This document shows, piece by piece, positions 3,429 through 61,002 of a DNA stretch of 64,000 nucleotides (the stretch's first letter is position 1; each line of letters opens with the position of its first letter). Position numbers and translations under genes: made by a program. This DNA comes from Prorocentrum cordatum. Its lineage: Eukaryota; Sar; Dinophyceae; Prorocentrales; Prorocentraceae. Under the pieces are notes generated by a model, which saw nothing but the letters and a program-made list of their open reading frames with translations, was not told where the DNA came from and made no database searches. The stretch spans positions 729,093 to 793,092 of the forward strand of contig CAUYUJ010019359.1 of assembly GCA_963575745.1 (NCBI GenBank). The letters are read 5' to 3'.

Positions 3429-3449
3429 TCCGTAGCCATTTGGCTCATG
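3429..3449 (+). promoter_or_regulatory. Degraded spliced-leader relic
   Basis: The sequence matches the dinoflagellate SL core (CCGTAGCCATTTTGGCTC) with one T missing from the TTTT run and the final CAAG read as CATG. It is followed by GC, not a GT donor, so it is a relic in a re-integrated mRNA and not an SL-RNA gene. The CATG change creates an upstream ATG and removes the terminal AG. Confidence 0.8.
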
Positions 3450-6008: not shown

Positions 6009-6030
6009 TCCGTAGCCATTTTGGCTCAAG
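6009..6030 (+). promoter_or_regulatory. Perfect spliced-leader relic
   Basis: All 22 nt match the dinoflagellate SL (T, then CCGTAGCCATTTTGGCTC, then AAG). The next bases are TGAGCC, so there is no GT donor of an SL-RNA gene. Its terminal AG, preceded by a huge polypyrimidine tract, could itself serve as a trans-splice acceptor. Confidence 0.95.
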
Positions 6031-6093
6031 TGAGCCCGCGCTTCGGGGGGCCCTCGCAGCGCGCCGCGCGGGCGCGTGGCGCGCCAGAGGCCG

Positions 6094-7391
6094 ATGTCCG
6101 CCAGTGCTGGTGGCAGCAAGCCGTGGGCGGCGGCTTCTGCCCGGTCGCTGGCCCGGCGCCTGCGGCGAGAGCGGCATGCACAGCGGGGTTGGTCTCGTGC
6201 GGCCGCGCTGTCACGCCGCACGAAGGCGCTCAGGGCCTCGCTCGACGTCCACTGGCGCCTTGGTGACGCCGTCGGCTGCTACCTCCCCACGCTCGGCGAG
6301 GAAGTGGCGGCCGCGCGGCTGATCGGTTGCGACCCTGCCCTCCTCGCCAAGGCGGACGCGGCGCTGGCGGAGGGCAACTCCGCACGCCACGCGCCGCCGC
6401 CTGGCGCGGCGAGGGGGCTTCTTAAGACGCCTGACGGGCTGGTGGCTGGGGCGCTCGAGCGCCTGCTGGAGGGCGCTACGCCGCCCCTCCGCCGCGACGC
6501 CGAGCCGTTAGTCCCAGTCGTGCGAGCTCGGCGTGGAGCAGGTCGTGTGCAATCCCAGCGTCGTCCCGCCTGTGCAGAGCCACTCCCGCGTCGTGGTGGA
6601 CGTGGGAGCCCCTTCGCGATGCGGATGGTGCGGACGACGCCTCTGTGTCAGAGCACTCGCAGTTGGTGGGCAACCTCGGCATGTCGGCTGAGGATGTGGT
6701 GGACCCACTCGTCGTGTGCAGTGCCAAGCCGCTGGAGGAGGTTCGGGAAGATCCCGTTGTGCAGGCCTCCAGCGAAGTCAGCAGAGTGGCCTCTCCTGGA
6801 GGTGATGAGCACAGCAATGGTGTCCAAGGTGGTGGTGACCTTGGTGTGGTGCTCTCCGACGGCGAGCCTGCTGACGACCCTAGCGGAGGTCCTCATGATA
6901 GTGATTGCGTTGCCCTCGGCTCCGAGGGCGAGCCTGCTGATGAGCGGGGCGGACATGGTGTTGAAGATGGTGTGGCCCTCGGACATGGTTGTGGTGATGC
7001 TGATGGTGCTGTCATTCCGATCGCGCTCTTGCAGTTCCTGGTTCAGCAGCAGGACGCTGGCGCCGTGGTCCACGAGGGCGACCTCATCGCGTGGCAAATC
7101 GAGGACAGCATCCGGTCCGAGGCCCACCTCATGGAGTGCGAGACGGAGGTCCAGGAGGCCATCGACAAGATGATCGACCAGGGCCTCGTCTCCGTCATGA
7201 GGCCGTCGCTCGGCCCGTCGCGCGCGCGCCGCCTGCTCGCTGCTAGCCGCCCTGCGGTCGCGCGGTCGTGGCCGAGCTCGGGGCATCCTGGGGGCGGCGT
7301 AAGTGGCGGATCCTCGCGTGGTCTCAAGCGCCACCCCCCAGGAGCCCCAAAAAGCGGCGCCGAGGGCGGCGGAAGTGGCGGATCCTCGTGA
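6094..7391 (+). pseudogene. Frameshifted SL-headed retrogene, paralogue of 3539-4720
   Basis: The first ATG after the SL relic is at 6094 (MSASAGGSKP). Protein-like sequence runs in that frame to ~6520, switches to a second frame (~6523-6615, CELGVEQVVCNPSV and so on) and then to a third (6618-7391), which is acidic and well formed to a TGA. Two frameshifts, or assembly errors, therefore break one ~430-codon gene. The N-terminal part shares an AVGC ... EVA ... PALLA block with the 3539 gene. The last part (about 7051-7200: GDLIAWQIEDS, then SEAHLMECETEVQEAIDKMI) reads like a small winged-helix domain and distantly recalls the C-terminal winged helix of MCM6; that is a weak inference. The frame ends in GGSGGSS, within a short duplicated GGCGGATCCTCG segment. 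Confidence 0.65.
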
Positions 7392-37424: not shown

Positions 37425-39065
37425 GACGCCTACGGCGAGTCACCGCCACCCCCATGCCTTCTTGGAAGCGCCTATGCGGCCGAAGGTTGAGGCCAGACCT
37501 GCCAAGCCATCGGACCATGCGTTCCCCGAATCGGTCTGGACAGCCTTCGGGGAACACGTGAGCATCTTGAGGGTCATCTTGGCCGCCTGAAGGCCATTTT
37601 GACCCTTTTCGGGCCTTCTTGGAGGACGTCTTGGAGGGCTCTTGGGCCGTTTGGGAGGCCATCTTGAGCGTCTTGGGGGCCTCTGAGGGCCTCTGGGGGC
37701 CGTCTTGGGGGCCTCTCGGGGCCGTCTTGGGCCTCTTGGGCGATCTTTGGGGGTACTTGGGCCGTCTCGGGCCGTCGGAAGGCCGAAAAAAAGCAAATAC
37801 CACAATCCTTCAAAAATTCATGGGCCTTTCGGGCCTTTTGATTTTGAAGGCCACGGGCCTTCAAAAGCCTGCCAAAATCGTGCAAATGCCACAATGAGTT
37901 TGGCCTTTTCGGGCCTTCCTGGAGGCCCTATTGGAGGCTTCTTGGGCCGTCTTGGGCCATCTTAGTGCCATCTTCGGCCGTCTTGGTGGGCTCCTGGCAC
38001 GTCCGACGCCGTCTGGAGCCGTTTGGGGGGCCTCTCTGAGCCGACTTGGGGCCCTCTTGGAATGCTCCAGGGCCGTCTTGGAGGCCATCTTGGGCGTCTT
38101 AGAAGCCTCCTGGGCCGTCTTGGGGGGCCGCCTTGAGAGCTTCTTGGGCCGTCATGGGGCCATCTTGGAGGCATCTTGGGCGATCTTTGGGGGCTCTTGG
38201 GCCGTCTCGGGCCGTCGGAAGGCAGACAAGAAGGAAATGTCAAAATCCTTCAAAAACCAAATGGAAATCAATTATTTTGGCCTTTTCGGGCCTTCCTGGA
38301 GGCCCTCTTGGAGGCCTCTTGGGCCGTCTTGGGCCAGCTTCGAGCAAACTTCGGCCATCTTGGTGGGCTCCTGGCCCGTCTGACGCCGTCTTGGGGGCCT
38401 CTCTGAACCGACTTGGGGTCCTCTTGGGGCGCTTCGGAGCCGTCTTGGAAGCCATCTTGGGGGCGTCTTGGAAGTCCCTTGGGCCGTCTTGGGGCCCTCT
38501 TGGGGCCGCCTTGGAGGCCTCTTGGGCCGTCATGGGGCCCTCTTGAGGCCTCGTGGGCGATCTTGGGGCGATCTTGGCGGCCTCTTGGGCCGTCTTGAGC
38601 CGTCGGAATGCCGAAAAGAGGCAAATGCCAAAATCCGTTGAAAACCTCAGGAAAATCAATGATGTTGGCCTCTTCGGACCTCCCTGGAGGGCCTCTTGGA
38701 GGCTTCTTGGGTCGTATTGGGCCGTCTTGGAGGCTTCTCGGGCGACCTTGGAAGTATCTTAGACTCTCTTGGGCCGTGTTGGAGGCCGTCAAGGACCATC
38801 TTGGGCGGACTTGGAGGGCATCTTGGACCATCTTTGAGGCCATCTTGAGCCAACGTGGCCATCTTGGAGGCCATCTTGAGCTGTCTTGGAGGAACATTTG
38901 GGAATTGGGCGATGGCTTGGGCGTCCTATGGGTCTTGCGGGGGCCCCGGCGGGACGCGCCGGAGCACCAGGGGGAGTTCTTTTTTGGAAAAAGAGCCAAA
39001 ACCAAAACCGAAAGTATCCAGCACGCCAGGCACCCCTGCGATGAATCGACAGGGGGCGGCGGATA
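37425..39065. repeat. 11-bp-period array element with GCCGCC ends
   Basis: The head has ACGGCGAGTCACCGCCACCC (~37432), the body is GGGCCGTCTTGGAGGCC-type units (37600-38930), and the tail reads CACGCCAGGCACCCCTGCGA ... CAGGGGGCGGCGGA (39024-39064). Similar heads occur at ~47716 and ~58627, and similar tails at ~58570-58613 and ~59500-59543. Interior modules are themselves duplicated at ~220-310-bp intervals (GGCCGTCGGAAGGC ... CAAAATCCTTCAAAA). Confidence 0.7.
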
Positions 39066-39144
39066 ATGATGTGTCTAATGGCTTTCGGCCCATCCTGCCA
39101 CCGTGTTTTGGTTGTGAGTCAGAGTTCTCAGGGATGCTTCTTCC

Positions 39145-39720
39145 TCTTCTTTTTATTATTATTATTATTCTTCTTCTTCTTCTTCTTCGGGGCGCTCTCG
39201 GATGCATTTTGGGAGCAGTTTGTGGCCTCTTGTGGCCTCTTGGAGGCCTCTGGAGGGCCTCTTGGGGCCACGTGGGGGCCTCTTGGGGCGCCTTGGGAGC
39301 CTCTTCGGGGCCTCCTGGGGGCCCCTCGGGGCCGAGGGCTCAAAATGTCCGCTCGGTTTCCCCATCTGGGCCCCCTCTTGGGTGGGCCTTCTTGGGCCGT
39401 CTTGGGCGCCTCTTGGGCCGTCTTGGGGCCCTCCTGAGCCGTCGGTTTGCGACGATCTGGGGGGCCTCGTGGGCCTTCGTGGAGCGTCGGGAAACCGAAA
39501 GGCGCGAACGGTGACATACTTCAAAACCCTTGGGACAATCAAAGAATTCTGCCTCTTGGGGCCCTCTTGGGAGGCCTCTGGGAGGCATCTGTGGGTGTCT
39601 TGGAGGACTGGGACCGTCTTGGGGCCGTCTTGGGCGTCCTGGAGCTACTTCTCGGCGGCGCGGAGGCTTCTTGGGCCCTCCTTGGGGCCTTTGGGGGGGC
39701 CCCCTGCGCCCCCTGCTGGG
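39145..39720. repeat. (ATT)n/(CTT)n then 11-bp-period array
   Basis: TTATTATTATT and CTTCTTCTT at 39153-39187, followed by GGCCTCTTGGGGCC-type units to ~39720. Confidence 0.8.
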
Positions 39721-39813
39721 CGGAGTCCGATTCCAGAAGCCCACGCGACACACCACAGTGACGCCCAAAAGGGCCCGTCGGCGCCCGGGAGACCCGGGGT
39801 CACGGCTCTTAAA

Positions 39814-39989
39814 TCGGGGGCGGACAGAACCCCCAACAGTGACACGTCGATTAGTGAATTGTCCGTTTTCGGTTCTCGAGAGGGCGCCGTGGCCGTCATT
39901 TTACAGGCTTGCGCCCGCCAGGTTTGGGCCTCAGGTCGTTTTCACTAAACCACGTTTTACTAAAGGAGGGTCTGCCCGCCCATCCCCGA
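39814..39989. mobile_element. 176-bp MITE with TCGGGGGCGGACAGA ends and 5-bp target duplication
   Basis: Left end TCGGGGGCGGACAGAACCCC; right end, reverse complemented, TCGGGGATGGGCGGGCAGAC. TTAAA lies on both sides (39809-39813, 39990-39994). It is ~85% similar to 44422-44593. It ends ~175 bp upstream of the retrogene's target duplication. Confidence 0.75.
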
Positions 39990-40163
39990 TTAAAGAACCT
40001 TTCAACCTTAAAACCCATCAGGGCTGCAGGAGCCTTGGGGCACTCCACTACGTGCTGAAGGCCCGGTAGCGGATTTCTTGATCCCCATACCAGGGCGTCA
40101 TCTGTGAGGTGCCGAGAAACATGAAAATATATCCAGGGAGTTTGTGAGTCGAGGACCGTCCAC

Positions 40164-40180
40164 GAGGGCCCAAGAGAGCT
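40164..40180 (+). repeat. 17-bp target-site duplication, upstream copy
   Basis: GAGGGCCCAAGAGAGCT ends directly at the first base of the SL and recurs identically at 41834-41850. Confidence 0.9.
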
Positions 40181-40202
40181 TCCGTAGCCATTTTGGCTCA
40201 AG
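40181..40202 (+). promoter_or_regulatory. Perfect spliced-leader relic
   Basis: All 22 nt match the dinoflagellate SL and are followed by GCCTGG (no GT donor). As the first transcribed bases of a retroposed mRNA it marks a full-length 5' end. Confidence 0.95.
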
Positions 40203-40270
40203 GCCTGGCACCGTCGTGCCACTTCAGCACACACACCACCCTGAACTGATTCGCCTTCGCACCTGCCAGG

Positions 40271-41620
40271 ATGGTGCCCGCCCGCCCGTGCGTGCTGCTG
40301 GCGTGCTTGCTGGCAGGCGCACACGGGGCGGCCTCGTACGGACTGGAGGCCGCCGCTGACTCCGACGCCCTGGCGATGCAGCTCTCCGACACCCTGGCGA
40401 TGCAGCTCTCCGCGGCGATGCGCACGCCTCCGACGACGGCCGTGAACGAGACGGACGAGAACTGCACGAACGAGACCATCCCTTGGCTCCAAGTCGGCTT
40501 CGCCATGGACTGCACCGGCAGCACCGGGGCGTACCTGGCGGCTCTGAAGACGACGGTCGGCAATTTGGCGACCCAGTTGTCGGCTTCAGTCACCACGTTG
40601 CAGATGGCCTTTTTGTGCTACCGCGACGAGGGCGATGTGTCCCCTCCCCGCTATGAGTGGGCAACGCACCCTAATCCGCTTGCTCACTGGTTCACGGACC
40701 CCGTGCAGCTGCAAGCCGCGATCGCCCCTTTCTACTCCGGAGGCGGCGGCGACAGTCCGGAGGACAACGCCGGCGCGATGGGGCAGATGTTGAACAACAA
40801 GCCATGGGATCCGAGCGCCGTGAAGGTTCTCATTGTCATCTCGAAGGACAGGGACTCCCAGCGGACGCCGTATCAGACCGACGCCCTCCAGTGCACGCTG
40901 ATGCAGGACATCAGGGCTGCCGGTATCAACCTCATCCTCGGGCATTTGGACACCAGCACGACATCATCCATGCTGTGGGACTCGACGTACAAACCGACAC
41001 TTCCATGGAAGGGATGCTACGCGGACCCCTCCGATCCACACCAGCTGAAGGAGATCCAGTTCTCTGGCGTTACCGCGACAGAATTCAGCGCCCTGTTGAT
41101 CGAGGAGATCTGCGACACAATCAGCACTGAACCAACAGACCCCACAGCAGTGGGCGATCCGCATCTCGTTAACATGCTCGGCGAGCATTTCGATATCATG
41201 CGCGCCGGCAGGTACAAGCTCCTCCACATCCCCCGTGACGCCGACAAGCGCGACTTGCTGCTCGCCGCAAGTGCAGACGTGGTCCGATACGGGCACTCCT
41301 GCGACGACATGTACTTCACGGCCATCAACATCACTGGACAGTGGTCCCTCGGGCACAAGAACACCACTTTCGTCGCCGGGGCCGCCCCGCCCAAGACCAG
41401 CACGGGCTGGGTGGACTTCGGCACCGTCTCGCTGAAGGTGGTCCACGGCAGGACGGTCAAGGCCACGCCGTACCTGAACTTCTTCGCGCGCCGCGTCCAG
41501 CACGCGGGGTACAGTGCGGGAGGCCTTCTCGGCGACGGCGACCACACGAAGGCCGAGACCCCAGATAAGGAGTGCCAGAATCACATGTCGCTGCTGTCAA
41601 GCAGCTCGGTGCTCAGGTGA
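40271..41620 (+). CDS. Secreted vWFA/vWFD-like protein (449 aa), intronless retrogene
   Basis: The ATG at 40271 is the first after the SL. Residues 1-20 form a signal peptide (basic n-region, CVLLACLLAGA core, AHG/A-type cleavage). Residues ~72-285 resemble a von Willebrand factor A domain. D80-C-T82-G-S84 matches the metal-ion-dependent adhesion site DxTxS and a GGGGDSPED segment follows (157-165), as in alpha-kinase-type vWFA proteins. Residues ~293-425 begin GDPHLVNMLGEHFDI, the hallmark of vWFD-like modules, and end in GGLLGDGDHTKAETPDKEC. N-glycosylation sequons NET (59, 67), NIT (353) and NTT (364) and many cysteines suit an extracellular or cell-surface adhesion role. The last ~14 residues are Ser-rich. 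No stop or frameshift is seen, so it may be functional or recent. Partners and ligands are unknown. Confidence 0.85.
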   Translation: MVPARPCVLLACLLAGAHGAASYGLEAAADSDALAMQLSDTLAMQLSAAMRTPPTTAVNETDENCTNETIPWLQVGFAMDCTGSTGAYLAALKTTVGNLATQLSASVTTLQMAFLCYRDEGDVSPPRYEWATHPNPLAHWFTDPVQLQAAIAPFYSGGGGDSPEDNAGAMGQMLNNKPWDPSAVKVLIVISKDRDSQRTPYQTDALQCTLMQDIRAAGINLILGHLDTSTTSSMLWDSTYKPTLPWKGCYADPSDPHQLKEIQFSGVTATEFSALLIEEICDTISTEPTDPTAVGDPHLVNMLGEHFDIMRAGRYKLLHIPRDADKRDLLLAASADVVRYGHSCDDMYFTAINITGQWSLGHKNTTFVAGAAPPKTSTGWVDFGTVSLKVVHGRTVKATPYLNFFARRVQHAGYSAGGLLGDGDHTKAETPDKECQNHMSLLSSSSVLR

Positions 41621-41833
41621 AGCTGGCCTTCCAGTACACCCCTTGCCGCCGCGATGTCTCTCGCGTTCCTCTGACGGGAGTGCATCTTCATTGTTTTCAC
41701 TATGATCTTGTTGTTCGGCGTTTTTTCGTGCTGAGACGCACGCTGGCGCAAGAGTTTAGAGACTAAAGCAGCCCAGACTGCGCTTTTTGTTGTCCGCACC
41801 TGTCACGGTCGTTGTCTTTATTGTACAAAAAAG

Positions 41834-41850
41834 GAGGGCCCAAGAGAGCT
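41834..41850 (+). repeat. 17-bp target-site duplication, downstream copy
   Basis: Identical to 40164-40180 and directly after the A run. Confidence 0.9.
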
Positions 41851-41894
41851 CCAAGACTGTTCAAGAGCGCTCCAAGGCGGTCCATGATGCCCTT

Positions 41895-41930
41895 CATCAG
41901 CTTCTTCATCATCAGTATCAGCATCATCAT

Positions 41931-41971
<41 letters not shown>

Positions 41972-42125
41972 CATCAGCATCAGCATCAGCATCAGCAGCA
42001 TCACAGTCCTTCCTCCTTCTGCCTGGCAGCGAGAGCTCTCCTTCTCTTCCTCCCTCCTTCTGCCTGGCCGCTGTTTTGTGATGGTTGTTCTCCTCCCTAC
42101 CTCTCCCCTGGACGCCCTCCCTACC
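41895..42125. repeat. (ATC)n, (CAG)n and duplicated CTTCTGCCTGGC
   Basis: CATCAT at ~41920-41950, CAGCAG at 41950-41970, then CCTCCTTCTGCCTGGC at ~42011 and ~42053. Confidence 0.85.
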
Positions 42126-42299
42126 TCCCCCCTGGACGCCCAACAATGCCGTCCCCCCTCCCCTCCCTGCAAAGACCCCTGCAATACCATGCCGAAGCCC
42201 CTGCGGAATCCCTCCCAAGACCGCGCGCAAAAGACCCTGTAAAGACACTTGCTAAGACCTTGCAATGCCTGGCAACACCTTGCAAACGACCCCGCAAAC

Positions 42300-42660
42300 C
42301 CTGCAATGGCTCTGCAAGGTACGGCAACCCAAAATGTAGACACATGGGTGGAACCCATAACATTTGGGCGGGCACACTTTGGGTAGCCACCCGCGTGCAT
42401 GGCTTTGGGTTGCCACCCATGTGTCCACATTCGGGGTGCCACCCAAGTGCGAACATTGGATTTGCCACGCATGTGTCCGCATTTGGGTGGCAAGCCATGC
42501 GTGGACGTGTGGTTTGCCACCCGCGTGCCTACATTCGGGTGGTCGCCACACGTTGGGTCGCCACCCGCGTCGGGAAACGTTGGGCTTGCCACCCGTGCTT
42601 CCACACACTCGGGTGGCCACCCGTGCACACGTGTGTGTTGGATGCGAGTGCGCGCGCGCG
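42300..42660. repeat. Degenerate ~32-bp repeats (TTGCCACCCGCGTG)
   Basis: GGGTTGCCACCCATGTGTCC and relatives about every 30 bp, ending in a (GCGC)n run at 42648-42670. Confidence 0.8.
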
Positions 42661-42699
42661 TGCGCGCGCAAGCTCACAGGAGCGGCGCTTCCCGCTCTT

Positions 42700-43407
42700 G
42701 TCCGGATGGGGCTCGTGATCCCCACACCAGGGCCTCCTCTGCGAGGTGCCGAGAGCCCCCCTCGCCCGAGGGTCGGGTGCTGCTAGATCAGTGCCCCTGG
42801 CCCAGGGCACCCCGAAGATCCTCGTCGGGCCGGCCCAGACGGCCCCCAGGGCACCCCTATAGCACGAGGCTCCGAGGGCCTCTGGGGCTCCCAAGCGGCA
42901 CGGCACCCTGGGGGGCACCTCGGGCCAGGGGCACTCCTAGCAGCACCCCGAGGGGGGGGGGGGGCAGGAGCACCGCTCTCCGAGGTCGCGGCCTCGGCCG
43001 CCGCGGCGCCGAGGCCGCCCACCGAGGCCGCTGCCTCGGGGCCTTCGGCCCCGCCCGCCGCCGCGCCTGGACTGCGGGCCGGGGAGCTCGGGGAGGCCCC
43101 GCGGGGCCTCCTCGGCGCGCTCTCTCGCGGGGGGCATCCCAATGGGGGCGGCGTCGGGGCCTGGCCCCTCCTGGCGCGCACGGCGCCTCCCGCGGCGGGA
43201 GGGAGGCTCGGGGCAGCGCGGACGGGGGGGGCCGCGGAGCGGGCGCGCGGGGGGGCGCGCGGCGCTCCCCGAGAAGGGGCACGGCCGCGTGCGAAGAGTG
43301 CGCCGGACCGGGCGGGTGCGGCGTGCGAGCTCTTCCGGCGGGGCCGCGGGGCGGGGCTGCGTGTGCGGGGCGCGAGGTCCGCGCGGGGGGTGTGCGGCAG
43401 TCGGAGG
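42700..43407. other. Very GC-rich sequence, no supported gene
   Basis: GTGATCCCCACACCAGGGCC ... GCGAGGTGCCGAGA (42716-42755) recurs in variant form at 40081-40117. Long open frames on both strands (up to 473 codons) are Arg/Gly/Ala/Pro-rich shadows of ~80% GC sequence. Confidence 0.5.
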
Positions 43408-49936: not shown

Positions 49937-49958
49937 TCCGTAGCCATTTTGGCTCAAG
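49937..49958 (+). promoter_or_regulatory. Perfect spliced-leader relic
   Basis: All 22 nt match the dinoflagellate SL and are followed by TTCCTG (no GT donor). It is preceded by a GGA-rich stretch (49886-49936). Confidence 0.95.
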
Positions 49959-50148: not shown

Positions 50149-51683
50149 ATGCCAGAACATTCCCAAAGGGGTTCTCGGTCGCCGAAGTGTAAGTCTGCTC
50201 GACCCGACGAGGAGGTTCAAGGTCACGCGACGCCTTCTTCTCAGGTCAGTTCTAATGGTCACCGTTTTTTCCTGGTGGTGAGGATCATCTTTCCGCTCAC
50301 GACCGGTGGCAGACATTGTTTGGAAACGCTGGGTTTGTTTCTGGCTCTGCGGGTCCCGCGGGAGTTCCTGCTCAATCCCCAGGTGAGCGCCAGAGCATCG
50401 ACGCGATCCTGGCCGTCCTCCCGCATGCGTGACATTCAGAGTTCCGTGGGCCGCCAGTTCGGGGAAGTCCAGCCCGCGATGAGCAACGAGATCACTGAAC
50501 ACACCAGCGGCCTGGCCAGGTGGGTAGTCAGCCAACTGGAAAACTTCAACGCGCACACCTCGGGCGGGGTCACTTCCTTCCGCGGCCAGCGACATGCACT
50601 CGAAGTCTCACAAGAGCAGGTAAGCGAACAGTTGGACGACGTGCGAAGCGAATTATCCATAGAGTAACGGGCTACCCAGATGGAACGCTCCAAAAAAAAA
50701 ATGCCTTCGAGGGCCGCAGGAGTTGTCATCTCGTCCTCGGCGGAGGGCGGTGGAAGGGCGGCGAAAGGTCGGCGGAAGTAAAACGAGGCCGCCTCCGCTG
50801 GCGGAAGGCTGGCGGGAGGCGGCGAACGTTACCGCAAATCGTCTCCAAGAGATGCAAACGTTTTTGGGTCCAGGGCATCCCAATTCGCCCAAATAAAGGT
50901 GATGAAGGTTTGGAAAGCGGGGTCGTCCTCCAGATGTGGCGGCTCTCGTGGTCAACCTCTCGGAGCTCGCGGTGCTGGCGACCGCGCCGAAATGCTTCGC
51001 CGAGTGAGGATTGAAGCTGCAGGCCTGGAGGACGACCAGTACAAGCTCGTGGGGCAGTCGCCCAACAGACGCTACACTTCGAGTCGGACGTGTCCCTCTA
51101 GAGGAAGAATATTCAGGAATGGTCAAAAATCAGTTTTGGGACGATTCTTTGTATTTTTTGGCTCGTGCTGATAATTGTTTGACTATTCCTTATTTGTCTT
51201 CCAAAACCCGCCTGTACGAGGGCATGCCCGACTTAACGCTACACCATCCATATGGCAGGCGACAACGGCGCAGCGCAACAGAACGTCCGCGCAATTCGGC
51301 GGCCCCTGAGATTTCATGGCGGCTGCTGGAGGCGATTCGCTGCCCTTTCCTCCGGGGAGGGGTCGGCCAAAATCTTCGCGGGCTTGGGCAAAGCGCCGGA
51401 GCAAACCACGACGGAGTTCCAGTGCCAGTGCAAGCGGCCCGCGGCCCTCGTCAAAGCGCAGATGCCCCGTGCCAGGTCAAGGCACGACAGGGCCAAAGGC
51501 ATCATCTACATGGACAGCGTCCCTACGATCAAGGCGCAGGTCGGCAACTCGGTCAAGTTCCGTTCGAGGCCCCTCGGGAAGTACGCGGCGGTGCGCGACG
51601 AGGGAGTGGGCCAGAAGGCGTTGCTGAAGGCAGCCAATGTCACCTTTGACGCGGTCGGGGAAAACATGCGGTGGGCCATTTAG
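50149..51683 (+). pseudogene. ORF1-like gene of the SL-headed element, broken and MITE-interrupted
   Basis: From ATG 50149 (MPEHSQRGSRSPKCKSARPD) the frame is basic and Ser-rich. At ~50275 protein-like sequence moves to another frame (GEDHLSAHDRWQTLFGNAGF) and returns at ~50428 (MRDIQSSVGRQFGEVQPAMS ...), a coiled-coil-like stretch to a TAA at 50665. Further fragments include RVRIEAAGLEDDQYKLVGQS (~51001-51060) and, beyond the MITE, GDNGAAQQNVRAIRR ... KGIIYMDSVPTIKAQVGNSV ... ENMRWAI up to TAG 51681. The two fragments either side of the MITE come into the same frame if the 167-bp element-plus-duplication is disregarded. A nucleic-acid-binding role is expected for a LINE ORF1 but no zinc knuckle or RRM is visible. 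Confidence 0.5.
51078..51236. mobile_element. 159-bp MITE inside the ORF1-like gene, 8-bp target duplication
   Basis: Left end TTCGAGTCGGACGTGTCCCT; right end, reverse complemented, TTAAGTCGGGCATGCCCTCG. CGCTACAC lies on both sides (51070-51077 and 51237-51244). Same family as 31954-32150, with a more decayed palindrome. Element plus one duplication is 167 bp. Ends are not GT-AG, so a spliceable intron is not indicated. Confidence 0.85.
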
Positions 51684-60294: not shown

Positions 60295-61002
60295 CGGCAC
60301 GGAGGCGGATTTGGTACCGCTGTGTTTGCCTTTGGTGCTGCGGTCACTGCTGGAGCGCGTGGAATGAACTACCTTGGTATGCTCATCGTTGGAGTTTTTA
60401 CAGCCGTTGGTGGCGGCACTCTCCGGGACGCGCTGTTATTGCCTGGGGTGGTCGCATCTCGGGGTGCATTGGGATGCTTCTGGTTATGTGACACCACATA
60501 TCTAACAATTGCTCTGTGGGCAAGCGCTGCCGCAGTCGTTTTATGGCCGCGCATCACGCGAAAAATGTTGCCAGAAGTTACCGCTGCCGGAAGTGTCGAG
60601 GCAGTTTTGCCAGGCTGGGCTTGGCTGGACCACCTGTCTTTGGGCACGTTTGCGGTGATGGGCGCACGTGCGGGCCTGCTGGCCAACACGGCCCTGCTGG
60701 GCGCAGTCCTCTGTGGAGGGATGACCGCGTGCGGCGGCGGGGTGGTCCGTGACGTGCTGACGGGGAGGCCGCCGCGCGTGCTCCACTCGAGCGCGGAGAT
60801 GTACCTGACGCCGGCGTTCCTCGGTGCCGCGGCGTGCGCGGGGGTGACGATCGTAGCTGCGCGCCGCATACCCGCCGGGTGCCAGATGGGAGCCGTGCTG
60901 GAGCCCGTTGCCGCCGTTCTGGGTGTGCTCGTCACGGTGGTCGGCCGCGCGGCAGCAGTGCGCTGGGACTGGCGGGTGCCAACCATGGGTGGGTCAAGAT
61001 GA
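60295..61002 (+). CDS. UPF0126/TRIC-type small multipass membrane protein, 3' exon
   Basis: The frame is open from just after an in-frame TAG at 60292 to TGA at 61002 (235 codons). It matches the UPF0126 family (bacterial YicG/YadS-like; related to TRIC cation channels; some members called glycine transporters). It has two internal repeats, each a hydrophobic helix followed by a GGG-x-x-RD signature: GGGTLRD at 60409-60429 and GGGVVRD at 60733-60753. FGTAVFAFGAAV then GMNYLGMLIVGVFTAVGGGT is typical of helices 1-2, and VLHSSAEMYLTPAFLGA of the later part. The usual N-terminus (~10-15 residues before GTAVFA) is missing and no suitable ATG precedes helix 1. CCTAG at 60290-60294 could be a 3' splice site, placing the start in an upstream exon I cannot see. 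No SL relic. Substrate is uncertain. Confidence 0.8.
   Translation, partial: RHGGGFGTAVFAFGAAVTAGARGMNYLGMLIVGVFTAVGGGTLRDALLLPGVVASRGALGCFWLCDTTYLTIALWASAAAVVLWPRITRKMLPEVTAAGSVEAVLPGWAWLDHLSLGTFAVMGARAGLLANTALLGAVLCGGMTACGGGVVRDVLTGRPPRVLHSSAEMYLTPAFLGAAACAGVTIVAARRIPAGCQMGAVLEPVAAVLGVLVTVVGRAAAVRWDWRVPTMGGSR

What the first reader, a model, noticed from the sequence alone, without database searches (positions are those of the whole stretch)
40164..41850. Complete retroposed SL-mRNA with 17-bp target duplication and A run, carrying an intact secreted vWFA/vWFD gene
The sequence shows GAGGGCCCAAGAGAGCT twice, ending exactly where the spliced leader begins and starting one base after an A6 run. 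Between them lie a perfect SL, a short leader, an intact intronless 449-codon frame and a 3' UTR. SL relics alone are known for dinoflagellate genes. Here both integration boundaries are preserved, so the event can be read base by base and implies a LINE-type (target-primed) machinery acting on trans-spliced mRNA.
Basis: partly seen in the sequence, partly recalled or inferred. Interest (0 to 1): 0.9.

Follow-up and report, generated by a model that had tools for sequence, protein, structure and literature searches.

The report
A gene pasted back from mRNA
In a dinoflagellate alga's genome, a finished messenger RNA with its added leader was copied back into DNA, and both seams of the insertion can still be read, hinting at a LINE-like rather than an LTR-type copying machine.

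Summary
GAGGGCCCAAGAGAGCT at 40164-40180 ends at the base before a perfect 22-nt dinoflagellate spliced leader (SL) and recurs at 41834-41850, one base after an A6 run. Between lies one intronless 449-codon frame, 448/449 identical to a JGI protein.

The 17-mer is not repeat-free: it belongs to a degenerate 10-11-bp tandem family. Removing the insert plus one copy restores that array across the seam, as only 33 of 20,000 random joins do, and none of 20,000 when either true flank is kept.

Best reading: a mature trans-spliced mRNA was reverse-transcribed and inserted by a LINE-type, target-primed machinery. SL-tagged retrogenes are well known; the bounded junction is the useful part. A 2018 review calls the machinery unknown and favours Ty1/copia; a 17-bp duplication without LTRs argues against LTR integrase here.

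Limits: one locus; the other SLs show no clear duplication; the A run is short; the target is not L1-like; LINEs in a related order are called old remnants; the genome could not be searched, so parent gene, empty allele and LINE remain unseen.

The parts
40164..40180 (+). 5' copy of the 17-bp target-site duplication GAGGGCCCAAGAGAGCT
   Evidence: Exact match, 2 in window; abuts SL
40181..40202 (+). Perfect spliced leader (first base T), 5' end of the inserted cDNA; contains CCGTAG, whose AG published relics use as acceptor
   Evidence: Pattern match with 0 mismatches; relics truncated after nt 7 at AG (passage of PMC3229502)
40203..40270 (+). 5' UTR, 68 nt
   Evidence: Sequence
40271..41620 (+). 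Intact single-exon frame, 449 aa; vWFA fold at about residues 68-285; GC3 0.84
41621..41826 (+). 3' UTR, 206 nt
41827..41832 (+). A6 run at the 3' end of the insert (short tail or AAAAG/C site)
   Evidence: motif
41833..41833 (+). Extra G between the A run and the second duplication copy
41834..41850 (+). 3' copy of the target-site duplication
41851..41884 (+). Rest of the degenerate 10-11-bp array, continuous with the 5' copy once the insert is removed (unit ends set by eye)

Best explanation
The insert is a retrocopy of a mature, trans-spliced and 3'-processed dinoflagellate mRNA. Shown: the insert starts at SL nucleotide 1 and ends in a short A run; it is bounded by a 17-bp direct repeat; removing it rejoins a tandem array; its frame is intact. 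Inferred: a LINE-type enzyme nicked the bottom strand between CCAC and GAGG, primed first-strand synthesis on the 3' end of the mRNA, copied through to the 5' end of the leader, and a staggered second cut 17 nt away was filled in to give the duplication. Also inferred: the copy stays usable because its own SL carries an AG (CCGTAG) that can accept a new SL, giving transcripts that read SL + CCATTTTGGCTCAAG + GCCTGG.
For: 17-bp repeat flush with the SL and one base after A6. Rarity of such words outside arrays, 98 of 40,680 positions. Empty-site join gives matches of 8/11, 15/21 and 19/31 at lags 11, 21 and 31. All three are reached by 33 of 20,000 random joins, 0 of 20,000 with the true right flank and a random left, 0 of 20,000 the other way round, against 566 of 20,000 uninterrupted places; the sum is reached by 56, 3, 2 and 1,063; the filled junctions score 0.22-0.36 per lag group. 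TRF finds a 10-11-bp array over the joined site (score 40, under the usual 50) and reports none there for the filled left junction (my printout was cut before the filled right junction). SL followed by GCCTGG, not GT, so not an SL RNA gene. No LTR-like direct repeat in 39901-42300, and apart from the 17-mer no word of 17 nt or more outside TRF arrays ending between 36,100 and 40,180 recurs 0.5-4 kb downstream. Dinoflagellate retrogenes with SL relics are published.
Against: One locus only. At the two other perfect SLs the words before the leader give no convincing duplication (6009: only simple-repeat words; 49937: none of 8 nt or more ending at the SL). The A run is six bases plus a G, so a true poly(A) tail is not proven. 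The target CCAC/GAGG has no TTAAAA-type or T-rich primer. No reverse transcriptase domain was seen in the 31 of 141 long frames scanned with Pfam. In Symbiodiniaceae and Polarella LINEs are described as divergent remnants of an old expansion, while most LTR elements look young (passage; one search says non-active); Prorocentrum was not covered there. No parent gene, empty allele or read was examined. The lags used were chosen after the array was seen, and a plain local alignment of the two flanks is less striking (181, 162 and 57 of 5,000 controls reach it).
Confidence: 0.74

Rival explanations
1. The mRNA was copied by an LTR retrotransposon (Ty1/copia) enzyme and inserted by its integrase, as the 2018 review proposes for dinoflagellate retrogenes.
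For: The review reports Ty1/copia as highly expressed and heat-activated in dinoflagellates and favours it (parts 1 and 2 of 3 read). In Symbiodiniaceae LTR elements look young and LINEs old (passage).
Against: LTR integrases make duplications of about 4-6 bp (recalled); here it is 17 bp. No LTR-like direct repeat next to the insert.
Confidence: 0.08
2. A free cDNA of the mRNA was captured during repair of a staggered double-strand break with a 17-nt overhang, with no endonuclease of its own.
For: The target is a tandem array, 3 of 4 SL-like sites in the window abut trinucleotide arrays, and the extra G at the 3' seam could be repair filler.
Against: A clean 17-nt fill-in with the full 5' end and an A run at the 3' end is the usual TPRT picture; repair joins more often show deletion or filler (recalled).
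Confidence: 0.13
3. Not an insertion: the gene and its SL relic reached this place by DNA duplication, and the 17-bp match is a coincidence inside a repeat family.
For: The 17-mer has 8 degenerate relatives at 3 mismatches and 27 at 4 on the minus strand; 3.3% of all positions have such a recurring word.
Against: Exact 17/17, flush with the SL and one base after A6; nearest other member is 3 mismatches away; array restored by the join.
Confidence: 0.03
4. Assembly artefact (transcript sequence stitched into genomic DNA).
For: Transcript-guided scaffolding is a known practice (recalled); a JGI contig of 1625 nt, about the length of the insert, encodes nearly the same protein.
Against: No N in the window; a stitched transcript would not bring a 17-bp duplication of the flank.
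Confidence: 0.01

Closest known systems
Dinoflagellate SL-relic retrogenes (recycled cDNAs; Slamovits and Keeling 2008, not read, as cited in PMC3229502, PMC6050394, PMC12014239)
   Same: Genomic SL upstream of a coding frame; interpreted as reverse-transcribed trans-spliced mRNA.
   Different: Here the whole SL, the 3' end and a 17-bp target duplication are all preserved. 'target site' had 0 occurrences in the main texts of PMC12014239, PMC10666404, PMC11453091, PMC10235124, PMC8045281 and PMC3229502 (find mode).
L1-mediated retrocopies and L1-like retrocopies of dicots (PMC4838847)
   Same: Target duplication, A run, no LTR: their cases include 13- and 15-bp duplications with one mismatch and A runs from 6 to 22 bp (passages).
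   Different: No TTAAAA-type target, A run only 6 nt, and the 5' end carries a trans-spliced leader. Their one 17-bp duplication is only 61% identical; here it is 17/17.
AAAAG/C mini-poly(A) at genomic polyadenylation sites, with SL-like 5' ends (Bachvaroff and Place 2008, PMC2488372)
   Same: AAAAAAG at the 3' end and SL at the 5' end; [quoted passage not shown]
   Different: Here the mini-poly(A) sits exactly at an insertion boundary, which fits their 'byproduct of duplication' option.
SL RNA genes
   Same: Perfect SL sequence.
   Different: No GT donor after the leader here; L003 shows the SL RNA-gene pattern (SL + GTACGC).

Membership tests
Dinoflagellate SL retrogene | SL or relic in genomic DNA upstream of a coding frame | tested here: met
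   22/22 at 40181, 68 nt before the ATG
Dinoflagellate SL retrogene | Frame without introns (usual, not obligatory) | tested here: met
   449 codons in one frame, matched end to end by the JGI relative
Dinoflagellate SL retrogene | Intron-bearing parent with fewer SLs elsewhere in the genome | not testable with these tools
No second copy in the window (tblastn)
L1-type (LINE) retrocopy | Target-site duplication of about 7-20 bp (length recalled) | tested here: met
   17/17
L1-type (LINE) retrocopy | 3' poly(A) | tested here: inconclusive
   A6 then G; may be the AAAAG/C site
L1-type (LINE) retrocopy | TTAAAA-type target | tested here: not met
   Seam is CCAC/GAGG; so it is filed as working like a LINE product, not as an L1 retrocopy
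LTR-mediated retrocopy | 4-6-bp duplication (recalled) or flanking LTR sequence | tested here: not met
   17 bp; no LTR-like direct repeat in 39901-42300 nor, outside TRF arrays, shared 17-nt words over about 4 kb around
SL RNA gene | GT donor and Sm site after the leader (recalled) | tested here: not met
   Leader followed by GCCTGGCACC
vWFA domain protein | vWFA Rossmann-like fold | tested here: met
vWFD domain protein | vWFD domain in the C-terminal half | tested here: inconclusive
   Only a GDPH...G..FD stretch resembling the vWFD start (recalled motif); no Pfam hit, low-confidence model there

The most novel reading that the evidence does not exclude
Dinoflagellate mRNA recycling is run by a non-LTR (LINE-type) machinery that prefers tandem-repeat DNA as target. 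All four SL-like sites in this window sit in or directly behind tandem arrays: three start 1-5 nt behind the 3' end of a trinucleotide array, and this one lies inside a degenerate 10-11-bp array; outside the window 1 of 4 SLs follows such an array. The AAAAG/C polyadenylation motif of this group would then be, at least in part, the fossil tail of such insertions.
Probability: 0.17. Interest if true: 0.72.

Novelty: new member of a known kind. Interest (0 to 1): 0.47.

Why it matters
In the species surveyed, roughly 22-26% of genes or full-length transcripts are put down to retroposition, yet the papers seen leave the machinery open and one favours LTR elements. A retrocopy with both seams readable gives a base-level test (duplication length, nick site, tail) that can be repeated over SL-tagged genes in existing assemblies.

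Tried and rejected
Whole-genome searches for the 17-mer, parent gene and empty site: the genome search returned 'busy' 16 times, so nothing was learned.

Duplications at the other leaders: one search tested 6009, 40181 and 49937 with exact words; only 40181 gave a clean one. 6009 gave only CCT-type words. The degenerate leader at 3429 was read by eye only. An A10 run at 50692-50701, starting 25 nt after the end of frame 50149-50667 behind the 49937 leader, has no matching flank by eye.

Microsatellite link: 3 of 4 SL-like sites lie within 1-7 nt behind a trinucleotide array, binomial 8e-8. The 7-nt limit was chosen after seeing them; with 'inside or within 7 nt' it is 1.4e-3. Of the four SLs outside the window (two in L001, one each in L002 and L003), only L002 follows such an array, making 4 of 8 in all. 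So this is a lead, not a result.

Independent SL insertions elsewhere: exact SL scans gave 1 viral contigs record and 2 genome contigs records. L001 has a leader-led 979-nt block ending at A6 but no duplication beyond AAAAAAT.

Reverse transcriptase in the window: 30 further frames plus the gene itself, 31 of 141 frames of at least 150 aa, scanned with Pfam; none. This is not exhaustive. Other empty searches: Rfam on 39000-43000, PDB by sequence, NCBIfam, the phages collection, viral contigs with the protein.

Papers: 10 text searches. The listings, and the passages read from some of them, showed no target-site duplication reported for a dinoflagellate retrogene. Two listed papers hold the term (PMC7789003, PMC9860276); by title and abstract they concern intronic elements, and I did not open them. 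The library lacks most subscription papers; Slamovits and Keeling 2008 was not looked up and Song 2017 was not held. PMC6050394: parts 1 and 2 of 3 read. PMC12014239, PMC10666404, PMC11453091, PMC10235124, PMC2488372, PMC8045281, PMC3229502 and PMC4838847: passages only.

Full report
What is there. The window is dinoflagellate nuclear DNA: it holds three perfect 22-nt spliced leaders (SL) where shuffles expect none, and the eight protein relatives that carry an organism name are all from Prorocentrum cordatum (four, four). GC is 61.6%, near the 59.7% published for that species (passage). The species itself was not given to me.

The locus. Reading left to right: GAGGGCCCAAGAGAGCT (40164-40180), SL (40181-40202), 68-nt 5' UTR, 449-codon frame (40271-41620), 206-nt 3' UTR, A6 (41827-41832), one G, and GAGGGCCCAAGAGAGCT again (41834-41850). 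The base before the first copy is C and before the second is G, so the duplication is 17 bp, or 18 with one change. The two copies and the leader carry no substitution, so the event looks young (inference).

Is it chance? The 17-mer occurs twice in 64 kb at up to 2 mismatches; shuffles expect 0.03. A stricter control uses the window's own repetitiveness: 1,983 of 59,900 positions have a preceding word of at least 17 nt recurring 0.5-4 kb downstream. With the word outside TRF arrays it is 98 of 40,680, in 14 groups. That this word ends at the base before the SL and recurs one base after one of 16 A6 runs of the + strand leaves little room for coincidence.

The word is not unique in kind. It belongs to a degenerate 10-11-bp tandem family spread through the window (8 minus-strand sites at 3 mismatches, 27 at 4). 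This turned out to help. If insert and one copy are removed, the units, split by eye, run on through the seam: AGGACCGTCCA CGAGGGCCCA AGAGAGCTCCA AGACTGTTCA AGAGCGCTCCA AGGCGGTCCA. TRF finds a 10-11-bp array over the joined site, with a modest score of 40, and reports none there for the filled left junction; my printout was cut before the filled right junction. Lag matches over the seam are 8/11, 15/21 and 19/31. All three are reached by 33 of 20,000 random joins, by 0 of 20,000 in each of two one-flank-true controls, and by 566 of 20,000 uninterrupted places; their sum is reached by 56, 3, 2 and 1,063; both filled junctions score 0.22-0.36 per lag group. The lags were chosen after seeing the array, and an ordinary local alignment of the flanks is weaker (181, 162 and 57 of 5,000 controls). 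I take the join as good independent support for an insertion.

Mechanism. A mature mRNA carrying its leader was copied to its very first nucleotide and inserted with a 17-bp stagger. LTR integrases leave 4-6 bp (recalled), and there is no LTR-like repeat beside the insert. LINE-type target-primed reverse transcription gives this picture; L1-like retrocopies in dicots include 13- and 15-bp duplications with one mismatch and A runs of 6 to 22 bp (passages). The L1 target TTAAAA is absent, so I do not file it as an L1 product. The A6+G matches the AAAAG/C motif that Bachvaroff and Place found at genomic polyadenylation sites and offered as a signal and/or a by-product of duplication. Here it stands exactly at an insertion seam, which favours the second option for this locus but does not prove it. 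Capture of a cDNA at a staggered break remains possible.

What is known. SL-relic retrogenes were described in 2008 and account for roughly 22-26% of genes or full-length transcripts in the species surveyed. Relics in transcripts are truncated after nucleotide 7, at the AG in the leader, so a fresh copy like this brings its own acceptor. Song and co-workers (2018) call the machinery unknown and lean to Ty1/copia; Haro and co-workers (2025) leave it open; a study of RNA-virus insertions leans to LINEs by proximity. Against a LINE source, LINEs in Symbiodiniaceae and Polarella are described as old remnants while most LTR elements there look young; Prorocentrum was not covered. In ten text searches I saw no report of a target-site duplication at a dinoflagellate retrogene; that library lacks most subscription papers.

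Results against. This is one event. The perfect leaders at 6009 and 49937 gave no convincing duplication. No reverse transcriptase was seen in the 31 of 141 long frames scanned. The parent gene, the empty site and the LINE could not be looked for, because the genome search did not answer in 16 requests.

A lead. Three of four SL-like sites (3429, 6009, 49937) start 1-5 nt behind a trinucleotide array, and the fourth is this one, in a 10-11-bp array. The probability is 8e-8 or 1.4e-3, depending on a limit chosen afterwards. Outside the window 1 of 4 SLs does so (L002).

Verdict. Observation confirmed, interpretation largely right. It is an ordinary kind of dinoflagellate retrogene with an unusually complete record of its insertion, worth turning into a genome-wide test.

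Noticed in passing
L001:1782-2767 (minus strand), second SL at 2893-2914: An IMG/VR contig (7157 bp, 6-28% GC in windows clear of the block, with a glycosyltransferase family 41 match) carries a 979-nt block of 49% GC that starts exactly at a perfect SL, holds a 254-aa frame whose search found only its own record (126 candidates scored), and ends at A6. It looks like a dinoflagellate SL-mRNA copied into an AT-rich, virus-labelled genome; no duplication beyond AAAAAAT, and the viral identity is not verified.
   Followed up: partly
window 3429, 6009, 49937: One degenerate and two perfect SLs start 1-5 nt behind trinucleotide arrays (CTC, CCT, GAG); L002 has an SL directly behind (TCA)n.
   Followed up: partly
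window 6009-7390: Perfect SL, 63 nt, then a gene 59% identical over 92% to a P. cordatum protein whose record bears an MCM6 C-terminal domain label; by eye the frame shifts inside, so perhaps a second, decaying SL retrocopy between CCT arrays.
   Followed up: partly
window 50692-50701: A10 run starting 25 nt after the end of frame 50149-50667 and 755 nt behind the SL at 49937: possible tail of another SL-mRNA copy without a visible duplication.
   Followed up: partly
window 60322-60999: Frame with a Pfam glycine transporter match (PF03458, E 2.7e-24, best stretch residues 101-173).
   Followed up: no
L003:4334-4354 (minus strand): SL followed by GTACGC and an AATTTTTTGG stretch, the pattern of an SL RNA gene (recalled), in a contig filed under a marine Dehalococcoidia MAG; probably eukaryotic contamination of the MAG.
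   Followed up: no
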